From IMG/VR virus record IMGVR_UViG_3300017605_000209, positions 1-53,115 of that record: 53,115 bases of DNA; one strand, given 5' to 3'. The DNA comes from a virus. Below, in pieces: positions 3,618 to 11,293 of the stretch. The translations under genes were made by a program, and so were the position numbers. The notes under the pieces are model-generated. The model was not told where the DNA came from and ran no database searches. It saw only the letters and a list, made by a program, of their open reading frames with translations. The first letter of the stretch is position 1; each line of letters opens with the position of its first letter.

Positions 3618-3789
3618 ATCGAACATCGCTGACCTCTCGACCGACAACAAGATTGATCTTCTTATCGAAGCTACTGACCGCCTTGAGGCACAGTACGAAC
3701 GAGTCGCTGGCCTTCTGGAAGATCTCAGCGAAAAGCTTGACAACCTTAACCTGAGCGGTGATGGGTTCGATGTTGAGGATTACAACTAA
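3610..3789 (+). CDS. Hypothetical coiled-coil protein
   Basis: A 59-residue, acidic and almost entirely helical protein; heptad spacing of Leu/Ile runs from about residue 12 to 47 (IDLLIEATDRLEAQYERVAG). I take the ATG before AESNIAD rather than the longer in-frame start, because the upstream sequence encodes a different small protein in another frame. Its stop forms a TAATG overlap with the RNA ligase gene, so the two are coupled and might interact. Confidence 0.6.
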   Translation: MAESNIADLSTDNKIDLLIEATDRLEAQYERVAGLLEDLSEKLDNLNLSGDGFDVEDYN

Positions 3790-4868
3790 TGGGAAGCTGG
3801 CAGAGCTATCCATCAATCTACAACTTGGGCCATCGTGCCATCAAGGATCTCCTCTTGGTACCGCACTACGTAGAGGAAAAGGTGGATGGCTCTCAGTTCT
3901 CTTTCGGTCTAGTTGAAACCGCTTCAGGTGCGATGCACTCAGAAGAAACAGGAGTTGTACCATTTAGGGATTACGAACTTATGGTGCGTTCCAAGGGTGC
4001 CATAATGATCGTTGATGCCCCAATGAAGATGTTCACCGAAGCAGTCAATACGGCCAAGTTCTTGGAGCACAAGCTTCACAAGGGCTGGACCTACAGGTGT
4101 GAATACCTGATGAAGCCGAAGCACAACACGCTGTCTTACGACCGCATTCCCGAGAAGCACTTGATCCTATTCGATGTGTCAACGGGTGACGGTGAGTTCC
4201 TCTCAGCGGCTGAAAAGAAAGCCGAAGCTGATCGCATTGGCTTGGAGTGTGTCCCGGTCTTGCACGAAGGTCCTGTCACACTTGACATTCTTCGGGGAAT
4301 CATCGACAATCAGGTCTCGGTATTAGGCGGGCAGAAGATAGAGGGCGTGGTCATCAAACAGAAAGGCCCTGACTACCTTTATGGTACCGACAAAAAGATT
4401 CTCATCGGCAAGTTCGTCTCGGAGCGTTTCAAGGAAGCGCACAAACTCTCGTGGGGCGAAAGCAATCCGACTTCAGGGGATATTCTTACGAAACTTGGTG
4501 CTGCCTACGGGACCCCTGGGCGATGGCTCAAGGCTATCCAGCATCTCCGAGATGCAGGTGCGCTTGAAGATTCTCCAAGGGATATTGGCAAGCTCCTGAT
4601 AGAAATCCAGAAGGACACCGGGATTGAGTGCAAGGAAGAGATCCAGAAAGCCTTGTGGAAGTGGGCGTGGCCGCACGTCTCGCGTCTGATTATCAAGGGG
4701 TTTCCTGAATACTATAAGCAGCAGCTAATGCAGCTTCAGTTTGAACGAGGTGAGCATGTCGATCCAGAAGATATCGTCCTCCCGTGTGTCCGTGAAGGTT
4801 GCGAAAAGCCGCGACTTGCAGGCTCCCAAGCCTGTGAAGATCACGTCCCAGGAAGCTTTTTCAATTAA
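3789..4868 (+). CDS. RNA ligase (nucleotidyltransferase family)
   Basis: A 359-residue ATP-dependent ligase. The motif I lysine is K31 in EEKVDGSQFSFG (KxDG), which would be adenylated. Motif IV is EGVVIKQ and motif V is in KILIGKFVSERFKEAHK. It resembles the T4 Rnl2-type/short phage RNA ligases more than DNA ligases, as there is no OB-fold or helix-hairpin-helix region of DNA-ligase size. The C-terminus carries an extra Cys/His cluster (CVREGCEK, then ACEDH) resembling a small zinc knuckle. Family members seal 3'-OH/5'-phosphate breaks in RNA. The kinase/phosphatase that would prepare such ends is encoded 6 kb downstream, and two tRNAs lie between. Confidence 0.85.
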   Translation: MGSWQSYPSIYNLGHRAIKDLLLVPHYVEEKVDGSQFSFGLVETASGAMHSEETGVVPFRDYELMVRSKGAIMIVDAPMKMFTEAVNTAKFLEHKLHKGWTYRCEYLMKPKHNTLSYDRIPEKHLILFDVSTGDGEFLSAAEKKAEADRIGLECVPVLHEGPVTLDILRGIIDNQVSVLGGQKIEGVVIKQKGPDYLYGTDKKILIGKFVSERFKEAHKLSWGESNPTSGDILTKLGAAYGTPGRWLKAIQHLRDAGALEDSPRDIGKLLIEIQKDTGIECKEEIQKALWKWAWPHVSRLIIKGFPEYYKQQLMQLQFERGEHVDPEDIVLPCVREGCEKPRLAGSQACEDHVPGSFFN

Positions 4869-5334: not shown

Positions 5335-5419
5335 GGCGAGGTAGACTAGTAGGGGGCTAGGCCAGACTGTAAATCTGGTGTCTTAAGGGGCTCCGATGGT
5401 TCGACTCCATCCCGCGCCA
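5335..5419 (+). tRNA. tRNA-Tyr (GTA)
   Basis: The sequence folds as a class II tRNA with a long variable arm, as expected for bacterial tRNA-Tyr. The acceptor GGCGAGG pairs with CCGCGCC with one A-G mismatch. The anticodon stem CCAGA/TCTGG encloses CTGTAAA with anticodon GTA at 5369-5371. The T arm is GATGG-TTCGACT-CCATC. The 3' CCA is not encoded (AAAA follows), so the host must add it. Confidence 0.88.
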
Positions 5420-5423
5420 AAAT

Positions 5424-5515
5424 AGTGACAGCACGCCCTGAAATGGGAAGGTCCAAACGGTGAAACTCCGTAGGGGCGAATAAATAGGTAAATAGCTCCC
5501 AGGAATGCTGTCACT
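5424..5515 (+). ncRNA. Candidate structured RNA between two tRNAs
   Basis: The spacer between the tRNAs is closed by a perfect 10-bp inverted repeat (5424-5433 with 5506-5515). Directly stacked inside it, 5434-5439 pairs with 5473-5478, and 5457-5460 with 5468-5471 makes a hairpin. TGGGA at 5444-5448 can pair with TCCCA at 5497-5501, which would be a pseudoknot. The remaining single-stranded parts are purine-rich (AATAAATAGGTAAATAG). No open reading frame fills it. It does not show hammerhead, tRNA or twister cores that I can recognise. T4 also encodes small stable RNAs (C and D) of unknown function inside its tRNA cluster. Confidence 0.6.
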
Positions 5516-5521
5516 TATAGT

Positions 5522-5593
5522 TTGCCTGTAGCTTAACGGTAAAGCATCTGCTTGTGGAGCAGGCGATTGTGGGTTCGAATCCCATCAGGCAAC
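5522..5593 (+). tRNA. tRNA-His (GTG)
   Basis: A standard cloverleaf: acceptor TTGCCTG/CAGGCAA, anticodon stem TCTGC/GCAGG with loop TTGTGGA and anticodon GTG at 5554-5556, and T arm GTGGG-TTCGAAT-CCCAT. By alignment to bacterial tRNA-His, position 73 is C, as in that family. Position -1 is T rather than the usual G, so the extra 5' G is not encoded. The bases CCA do follow the acceptor, but one of them serves as the discriminator. Confidence 0.88.
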
Positions 5594-5612
5594 CATTTTT
5601 AAGGAGTATTCA

Positions 5613-10034: not shown

Positions 10035-10389
10035 AGAAGCTAAAAGCCACAGCAAGGCTAAGCTAAAAGCAAAGCAGGAACGAATCTTTGAAGAGCGTGC
10101 CAAGCAACGTAAACTTGATGAAACATGGGCAAAGAATAACTTTGAATCTTATCTCAAAGAGGCAGAAAAAGAAATCAGAATTGCTGTAAAAAATGCTTAT
10201 GAGAGCACCTCTATCCGACTTCCTGGTGAAGATCATGATCAAGGTACGTTACTTTTAGCCAGTAAGTTGTCAAACGAACTAAGAAAACATGGGTATAAAA
10301 CCAGTTATAACTACTATAGAACCCATGATATAGATTATCCAGACGATCACTGGACTTTTGAAATTTATTGGGGAGAAGAGAATGGCTAA
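10021..10389 (+). CDS. Hypothetical helical protein
   Basis: A 122-residue protein. I chose the ATG preceded by GAGGAA over two earlier in-frame starts. The first 60 residues form a long basic and acidic helix (coiled-coil-like); the second half is mixed and Tyr-rich. It overlaps the kinase gene by eight bases. Family unknown. Confidence 0.6.
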   Translation: MISAKEAKSHSKAKLKAKQERIFEERAKQRKLDETWAKNNFESYLKEAEKEIRIAVKNAYESTSIRLPGEDHDQGTLLLASKLSNELRKHGYKTSYNYYRTHDIDYPDDHWTFEIYWGEENG

Positions 10390-11293
10390 GCTAATCATGT
10401 GTAAGGGCCTGCCAGGATCGGGCAAGTCCACTTGGGCTGCTGATCAGGTACTCAGTTCTCAGATGCGGAACGATGACGCCTCACAGTGGTGGACTATCGT
10501 GAACCGGGACAAGATCCGGCGTAATTTGGAAACGACTGGCTGGTCTTGGTCCTTTGAGAATGAAAAAGACGTTGTACTTAAGCGTGATTATCTCATTCGT
10601 AACGCCCTAGCTGACGGCAGGACGGTCATCTCGGACGATACCAACATGAGCCACAAGCATAAGGTCCAGCTTGAAGCCCTAGCCCGTGAGTTCGGGGCCG
10701 ATTTTGAGGTAAAAGATTTCACCAACTTGGTCACTGTCGAAGAGTGCATCCGGCGTGATTCCCTGCGGCAGGGGAAGGCCAAGGTTGGAGAGAAGGTTAT
10801 CACCGATATGGCAAACCGTTACCACATCGCGAACCGGGAAGAGCCTGTCTTTCAGCCTGTCCAGCAGACTGTTGGCCTCCCCACTGCAATCATTTGTGAC
10901 CTTGATGGTACACTTGCATTGTTCAATGGTAAGCGTTCTCCGTATGATGCATCCACCTGTGAGCAGGACGAGGTCAACGAGCCTATCGCGGCTATTATCG
11001 AGGAGTTCTATGCTTCCGATAGCGCAGACATCCTCTACGTCTCTGGGCGGGAGGACAAGTATAGGGATGCGACTGAACGTTGGCTCCGTAAGTCCATGTT
11101 GCCTGCTGGCCCCCTCTACATGCGAACTACCGGGGACCACCGGAAGGATTGGATTGTCAAGGGCGAAATCTTTGATGCTCATATCCGTCATAAGTATAAT
11201 GTGCTGTTCTGCCTGGACGACCGTGACCAAGTAGTTAAGTTCTGGCGCTCTATCGGTTTAACCTGCCTTCAAGTGACAGAAGGGAATTTCTAA
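10382..11293 (+). CDS. pnk: Polynucleotide kinase/3'-phosphatase (T4 Pnkp-like)
   Basis: A 303-residue protein with the two-domain order and length of T4 PseT (301 residues). The N-terminal kinase has the P-loop GLPGSGKST at 9-17 and an NRD motif at 41-43. The C-terminal HAD phosphatase has DLDGT (D173, D175) and a later SGRED. It would phosphorylate 5'-OH ends and remove 3'-phosphates or 2',3'-cyclic phosphates, which are the ends left by anticodon nucleases. The RNA ligase needed for sealing is encoded upstream in the same direction, with the phage tRNAs between them. Confidence 0.9.
   Translation: MAKLIMCKGLPGSGKSTWAADQVLSSQMRNDDASQWWTIVNRDKIRRNLETTGWSWSFENEKDVVLKRDYLIRNALADGRTVISDDTNMSHKHKVQLEALAREFGADFEVKDFTNLVTVEECIRRDSLRQGKAKVGEKVITDMANRYHIANREEPVFQPVQQTVGLPTAIICDLDGTLALFNGKRSPYDASTCEQDEVNEPIAAIIEEFYASDSADILYVSGREDKYRDATERWLRKSMLPAGPLYMRTTGDHRKDWIVKGEIFDAHIRHKYNVLFCLDDRDQVVKFWRSIGLTCLQVTEGNF

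What the first reader, a model, noticed from the sequence alone, without database searches (positions are those of the whole stretch)
5424..5515. Pseudoknotted RNA candidate between two tRNA genes
Seen: the spacer between tRNA-Tyr and tRNA-His is closed by a perfect 10-bp helix, with a second helix stacked directly on it (5434-5439/5473-5478), a hairpin (5457-5471) and a possible pseudoknot (5444-5448 with 5497-5501). There is no ORF. Known: T4 has small stable RNAs of unknown function in its tRNA cluster. Inference: a stable small RNA or self-cleaving element released by tRNA processing.
Basis: partly seen in the sequence, partly recalled or inferred. Interest (0 to 1): 0.72.

Follow-up and report, generated by a model that had tools for sequence, protein, structure and literature searches.

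The report
Small structured RNA between phage tRNAs
The gap between two phage tRNA genes encodes a compact RNA sealed by a perfect 10-base-pair stem; it looks like a distant, shortened cousin of an unannotated but clearly conserved RNA found between tRNA genes in more than 100 other phage records, although the pseudoknot first proposed is not supported.

Summary
The window is a 53-kb uncultivated phage contig. The spacer between tRNA-Tyr (5335-5419) and tRNA-His (5522-5594) is closed by a perfect 10-bp helix; 0 of 20,000 shuffles reproduce it. There is no sense ORF and no Rfam match. Inside that helix the proposed pseudoknot is no better than chance: 278 of 5,000 shuffles reach its two stems, 98 of 5,000 reach them plus the hairpin, and nested folds compete.

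No homologue turned up in viral, plasmid or GTDB genome collections, or in related phages. A survey of tRNA spacers uncovered something else: an RNA of about 108-122 nt, absent from Rfam 15, sits among tRNA genes in Klebsiella, Aeromonas, Pectobacterium, Kosakonia and Stenotrophomonas phages (116 records), with a 7-14 bp closing helix and strong covariation (18 pairs changed on both sides).

A covariance model of that family aligns to the window spacer closing helix to closing helix (9.1 bits, E=0.012 for the locus but 1.8 for the whole window). The shared hairpin lies in exact register (13 of 20,000 shuffles). I read the spacer as a small RNA excised by tRNA processing, probably a reduced, distant relative of this family. 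Membership is suggestive, not proven; function is inferred only.

The parts
5335..5419 (+). tRNA-Tyr (GTA), upstream neighbour, CCA end encoded
   Evidence: ARAGORN; Rfam RF00005 36.4 bits
5424..5433 (+). P1 closing helix, 5' strand AGUGACAGCA
   Evidence: pairs perfectly with 5506-5515; 0/20000 shuffles
5436..5447 (+). possible P2 hairpin CCC-U-GAAA-U-GGG (family-like fold; weak in the thermodynamic ensemble)
   Evidence: family-model alignment; pairing probability 0.02: tentative
5451..5477 (+). P3 extended hairpin: outer stem 5451-5454/5474-5477 (GUCC/GGGC), inner stem 5457-5460/5468-5471 (ACGG/CCGU), loop UGAAACU
   Evidence: pairing probability 0.61 outer, 0.95-0.99 inner; same place and motif as the conserved P3 of the family
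   Evidence: pairing probability 0.004; chance-level in shuffles
   Evidence: chance-level as pseudoknot; nested pairing probability about 0.4-0.59
5478..5505 (+). A-rich 3' linker; the family has its P4/P5 region here, which the window lacks
   Evidence: alignments
5506..5515 (+). P1 closing helix, 3' strand UGCUGUCACU
5522..5594 (+). tRNA-His (GTG), downstream neighbour
   Evidence: ARAGORN; Rfam 66.7 bits
3789..4868 (+). phage RNA ligase, upstream in the same orientation
   Evidence: Pfam PF09414 E=1.5e-13, phrog_548
10358..11293 (+). polynucleotide kinase (with the ligase, an RNA-repair pair)
   Evidence: phrog_505 E=1.3e-88

Best explanation
The spacer encodes a small structured phage RNA of about 92 nt that is co-transcribed with tRNA-Tyr and tRNA-His and freed when the ends of those tRNAs are made (RNase P at the 5' end of tRNA-His, 3'-end maturation of tRNA-Tyr). 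The perfect 10-bp helix P1 clamps its ends and should protect it from exonucleases. Inside it is not a pseudoknot but most likely a nested fold with a dominant hairpin P3 (inner stem ACGG/CCGU). It is probably a distant, reduced relative of a covarying RNA family (P1-P5) that occupies the same kind of site in many tRNA-carrying phages, lacking that family's P4/P5 part. I expect it to act in trans as a protein-binding or decoy RNA in tRNA metabolism or defence, rather than as a ribozyme. Shown: P1, the tRNA context, and covariation of the family. Supported but not proven: kinship of the window element with the family. Inferred: excision, stability and function.
For: P1: 0/20000 shuffles. The other two long spacers closed by 11-bp helices among the 38 surveyed match no Rfam family either. 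Family: 116 phage records by blastn, in Straboviridae (AhMtk13a, 44RR, phage 25, avDM4, IME13), Ackermannviridae (KpS110), Schitoviridae (CB4, Kc283, P184) and Vequintavirinae (KB57). Covariation: 91.9% of cells paired, 18 of 31 pairs changed on both sides; slid controls 37-47% and 3-5 pairs. No Rfam family matches it. Window vs family: model R2 hits exactly 5425-5514, P1 on P1, correct strand, 9.1 bits, E=0.012 in the 341-nt locus. Sequence-only profile of the interior: best match on diagonal 0 from P1, 13/20000 shuffles; hairpin with loop UGARA at that place, 5/20000. Model R1, built from the window alone, picks the homologous hairpin in nine family loci, with low scores. Same neighbour in KpS110, Kc283 and TASP117: tRNA-Tyr directly upstream with a few nt of gap. 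No terminator-like site between the tRNAs.
Against: Over the whole 53-kb window the R2 hit is only rank 5 (E=1.8). The banded profile test was chosen after the alignment was seen; without the register condition it is 100/5000. The conserved P4/P5 segments (AAGCCUUAA, GGACAGAAC, CCU-GUGAC-AGG) are missing. No intermediate member was found in related phages. No transcript evidence is available for the window.
Confidence: 0.5

Rival explanations
1. The spacer RNA is unrelated to the family. It is an independent, lineage-specific spacer whose only real feature is a strong closing stem that guides processing (for example an RNase III or RNase E site, or a stem that insulates the folding of the two tRNAs); the interior has no specific function.
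For: Interior no more stable than shuffles; no homologues by sequence; long closing stems recur in unrelated spacers of different sequence.
Against: Hairpin motif in exact register with a conserved family and same neighbour tRNA-Tyr in three members.
Confidence: 0.35
2. A pseudoknotted RNA or self-cleaving ribozyme: helix 5434-5439/5473-5478 stacked on P1 plus pseudoknot 5444-5448/5497-5501.
For: The named pseudoknot is the best one available in the interior and with the hairpin is reached by only 98/5000 shuffles; the loop lengths are sterically plausible.
Against: No ribozyme family in Rfam matches; the second helix has pairing probability 0.004 and nested folds compete. The best equivalent 5-bp pairings found in the family alignment are only 75-83% paired, against 91.9% for the nested structure.
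Confidence: 0.08
3. A degenerate or aberrant tRNA (cloverleaf-like fold within 0.4 kcal of the minimum), that is, a tRNA fossil or tRNA mimic.
For: A four-way-junction fold with 4-bp, 4-bp and 5-bp arms exists at -32.6 kcal/mol; a degenerate tRNA-like spacer occurs in the relative G022.
Against: No T-loop (UUCGA) or D-loop signature, 10-bp closing stem, no ARAGORN or Rfam tRNA call.
Confidence: 0.05

Closest known systems
Phage T4 RNA C and RNA D (species 1 and 2 RNA, rnaC/rnaD; NC_000866 70908-71171)
   Same: Small non-tRNA RNAs (139 and 119 nt) embedded in a phage tRNA cluster; roles unknown (PMC3014915)
   Different: No sequence or structural match to the window or the family (family model finds nothing in T4); rnaC carries a tRNA-like T arm
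GOLLD (large phage/prophage RNA near tRNA islands)
   Same: Phage-encoded non-coding RNA near tRNA islands, function unknown (PMC12286853)
   Different: Often over 800 nt, with a different structure and nanocage assembly; no Rfam match here
ROOL (large phage/prophage RNA near tRNA islands)
   Same: Phage-encoded structured RNA near tRNA islands, function unknown (PMC12286853)
   Different: Far larger, forms a nanocage; no Rfam match here
Family R2 described here (Klebsiella phage Tribble Asp-Pro spacer and relatives), not in Rfam 15
   Same: Site between tRNAs, perfect closing helix, hairpin with UGARA loop at the same distance from P1, similar overall length (92 vs 108-122 nt)
   Different: Window lacks the conserved P4/P5 segments; hits the model at only 9.1 bits
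E. coli tRNA-spacer sRNA sponges such as 3'ETS-leuZ (from my own knowledge)
   Same: A functional RNA cut from a tRNA precursor transcript
   Different: Sponges pair with sRNAs and need no clamped fold; no such pairing was tested here

Membership tests
R2 tRNA-array RNA family (defined here) | Located between or directly beside tRNA genes, a few nt from their ends | tested here: met
   4 nt after tRNA-Tyr, 6 nt before tRNA-His; family gaps similar
R2 tRNA-array RNA family (defined here) | Closing helix P1 of 7-14 bp | tested here: met
   10 bp perfect, 0/20000 shuffles; family range
R2 tRNA-array RNA family (defined here) | P3 hairpin AYRG-UGARAAG-CYRU at fixed distance from P1 | tested here: met
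   AACGGUGAAACUCCGU on diagonal 0; two loop differences (AAG to ACU); 13/20000 and 5/20000 shuffles
R2 tRNA-array RNA family (defined here) | P2 hairpin with GUC loop | tested here: inconclusive
   Window has CCC-UGAAAU-GGG at the place, different loop, low pairing probability
R2 tRNA-array RNA family (defined here) | Conserved P4/P5 segments AAGCCUUAA, GGACAGAAC, CCU-GUGAC-AGG | tested here: not met
   Absent from 5478-5505. So I do not file it as a confirmed member, only as a probable distant relative
R2 tRNA-array RNA family (defined here) | Covariance-model score clearly above background | tested here: inconclusive
   9.1 bits, exact ends; E=0.012 in the locus but 1.8 in the whole window
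T4 RNA C/D | Homology to rnaC or rnaD | tested here: not met
   Family model finds nothing in T4; no blastn match of the spacer to any T4-like record
Self-cleaving ribozymes (hammerhead, HDV-like, twister, pistol, hatchet) | Match to the Rfam model | tested here: not met
   No match at E<=10
GOLLD / ROOL | Match to the Rfam models; length over 500 nt | tested here: not met
   No Rfam match; element is 92 nt
Small stable phage RNA released by tRNA processing | Discrete stable transcript | not testable with these tools
   Needs RNA-seq or Northern blot of infected cells

The most novel reading that the evidence does not exclude
The window RNA is an outlying member of a widespread phage RNA family of tRNA arrays, unannotated in the records and models searched here, with covariation-supported structure across at least four phage groups, that travels with tRNA genes and acts in trans, for example as a decoy for host tRNA-targeting nucleases alongside the phage's RNA ligase and kinase.
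Probability: 0.3. Interest if true: 0.8.

Novelty: new variant of a known kind. Interest (0 to 1): 0.58.

Why it matters
Small RNAs in phage tRNA arrays have no known role; T4's RNA C and D are still listed as of unknown biological role (PMC3014915). A covarying family in cultured Klebsiella and Aeromonas phages makes the question testable: delete the RNA, look for it by Northern blot, pull down its partner. It also warns annotators: in several records the RNA is marked as a 'hypothetical protein'.

Tried and rejected
1) Homologues of the spacer: blastn in phages and plasmids, exact-pattern scans of viral contigs and GTDB genomes. All hits were coding DNA or chance: about 120 expected by chance in the genome scan, 104 found, and the repeated Brevibacillus hits are copies of one dispersed repeat. 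2) A 16-of-20 match upstream of tRNA-Ile in relative G004 (TGAAAnGGGAAGGnCCnAA) looked promising; I estimate about one such match by chance in the sequence scanned, and its fold differs, so I dropped it. 3) Related phages found by portal protein and RNA ligase: their tRNA loci hold no spacer like this one; in the closest relative, G006, the region between ligase and phosphoesterase has no tRNAs. 4) Pseudoknot and ribozyme readings. 5) Group II intron and CyVA-1 matches were far below gathering scores. 6) Coding: all three sense frames are broken. 7) Many closing-helix hits of 7 bp in the survey are probably unrecognised tRNAs (an acceptor stem is 7 bp), so I rely only on those of 8 bp or more.

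Full report
The window is a virus record of 53,115 bases: an uncultivated phage whose portal protein (P22-type) is 69-74% identical in its nearest IMG/VR relatives and only 29% identical in the nearest listed phage record. It carries two tRNA genes, tRNA-Tyr at 5335-5419 and tRNA-His at 5522-5594, an RNA ligase 470 bp upstream of the tRNAs and a polynucleotide kinase. The last two resemble the T4 tRNA-repair pair (PMC10264068 and its references).

Checking the observation. The 102-nt spacer is closed by a perfect 10-bp helix, 5424-5433 with 5506-5515. In 20,000 dinucleotide-preserving shuffles none reached 10 bp near the ends. That part is real. The rest is weaker. The fold's z-score of -3.83 comes from this helix: with it fixed, the interior is not more stable than its shuffles (236 of 1,000 as good). 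Nested alternatives at -33.0 and -32.6 kcal/mol use the same strands. Only P1 and the hairpin at 5457-5471 are robust.

Looking for relatives. No Rfam family matches the spacer, even at a loose threshold. Sequence searches of phages, plasmids, viral contigs and GTDB genomes found only chance or coding matches. Relatives of the phage were collected by portal and by RNA ligase. Their tRNA loci were read directly and scanned with a model of the window element without a convincing homologue. The tRNA cassette is evidently variable: in G006, which shares 71% (portal) and 61-63% (ligase) identity, the ligase and phosphoesterase genes lie 200 bp apart with no tRNA between them.

A survey of spacers. 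I took all inter-tRNA spacers of 45-350 nt in the sequence held, 38 in all, and measured the longest perfect helix closing each. Five reach 8 bp or more: the window (10 bp), a 223-nt spacer in related phage G022 (11 bp), two spacers in an unrelated 211-kb contig (11 and 8 bp; the 8-bp one closes only 43 nt) and a 121-nt spacer in Klebsiella phage Tribble (8 bp). The Tribble spacer opened the case. Blastn finds it in 116 phage records. In the members inspected it lies between or directly beside tRNA genes in Ackermannviridae, Schitoviridae, Straboviridae and Vequintavirinae, with different tRNA neighbours, unannotated or labelled 'hypothetical protein'. It is absent from Rfam 15. Twelve members align well. 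A structure with P1 (closing helix), P2, P3, P4 and P5 has 91.9% of cells paired against 37-47% when the partners are slid, and 18 of 31 pairs show changes on both sides. This is strong covariation, though the rows are clustered (about three effective sequences at 85% identity), so independent events are fewer than the cell counts suggest. Aeromonas and enterobacterial-phage members differ in most P1 pairs and still pair; the KB57 P1 is misregistered in the alignment but forms its own 8-bp helix.

Does the window belong to it? For: model R2 aligns the window at exactly 5425-5514, from closing helix to closing helix on the correct strand, 9.1 bits, E=0.012 in the 341-nt locus. In a separate search of tRNA regions, the 223-nt (L108) and 141-nt (L168) spacers with 11-bp closing helices did not reach 7.2 bits, so a closing helix alone does not give this score. 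A sequence-only profile of the family's interior finds its best match in the window at the same distance from P1 (diagonal 0), reached by 13 of 20,000 shuffles on that diagonal, 35 within two positions and 100 of 5,000 anywhere. The core of the match is the P3 hairpin, AACGGUGAAACUCCGU in the window and AACGGUGAGAAGCCGU in KpS110. A hairpin of this form at that place arises in 5 of 20,000 shuffles. Conversely, the model built from the window alone picks out this same hairpin in nine family loci, though with low scores. In KpS110, Kc283 and TASP117 the upstream neighbour is also tRNA-Tyr. Against: over the whole window the hit is rank 5, the register test was designed after the alignment was seen, the conserved P4/P5 segments are missing, and no intermediate was found. 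I put kinship at about one half, and do not file the window RNA as a confirmed member.

How it most likely works. The two tRNAs and the spacer lie on one strand with no terminator-like site between them. Maturation of the tRNA ends would cut the transcript 4 nt before and 6 nt after P1, leaving a compact RNA with clamped ends. This is inference from established tRNA processing, by analogy with T4 RNA C and D, which come from the T4 tRNA region and whose roles are unknown (PMC3014915). What the RNA then does is unknown. Because the family moves between unrelated phages together with different tRNAs, and because phage tRNAs are argued to counter host anticodon nucleases (PMC10264068), a trans-acting role in tRNA metabolism or defence is the most economical guess. 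I give that specific function no more than about 0.25.

Novelty. Structured RNAs near phage tRNA islands are a known kind (T4 RNA C/D; GOLLD and ROOL, PMC12286853). The family found here is a new, small member of that kind by Rfam and by the papers I could search; subscription literature was not covered. The window element is at best a divergent variant of it.

Noticed in passing
L284:7867-7974, L290:258-367, L291:262-369, L292:263-371, L293:233-354, L296:223-330, L297-L302: Covarying RNA family not in Rfam 15, wedged among tRNA genes in 116 phage records; in several records annotated as a 'hypothetical protein'.
   Followed up: yes
L168:3556-3696 (211-kb viral contig): A 141-nt spacer between two tRNA-Ser genes closed by a perfect 11-bp helix; no Rfam family, no blastn match in phages.
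   Followed up: partly
L108 (G022:10300-11700), minus strand, spacer tRNA-Leu to tRNA-Phe: A 223-nt spacer closed by a perfect 11-bp helix (ACACGGACAAG/CTTGTCCGTGT), fold z = -2.87.
   Followed up: partly
L109 (G022:35900-36500), minus strand 298-401: Y RNA-like (YrlA) match, 34.8 bits, below gathering but E=1e-4, with a tRNA T arm placed before a D arm.
   Followed up: no
L108, spacer between the Ala-like tRNA and tRNA-Met: A degenerate tRNA-Met-like hairpin set with a CAU anticodon-type loop, itself closed by a CACGG/CCGTG stem.
   Followed up: no
L137:6958-7318 (G048): A phage-encoded tmRNA (tag AEDYSFAEMLKVA) directly downstream of the RNA ligase gene.
   Followed up: no
L145 (G045:38400-41800): An array of 23 ARAGORN tRNAs in a relative that shares the RNA ligase; at least one further tRNA (Tyr-like, near 1970-2066 of the reverse complement) was missed by ARAGORN.
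   Followed up: no
window 5520-5595: The tRNA-His gene has T, not G, at position -1, and its CCA end does not appear fully encoded after C73.
   Followed up: no
window 3789-4868 and 10358-11293: RNA ligase plus polynucleotide kinase in a phage with only two tRNAs, a possible tRNA-repair pair.
   Followed up: no
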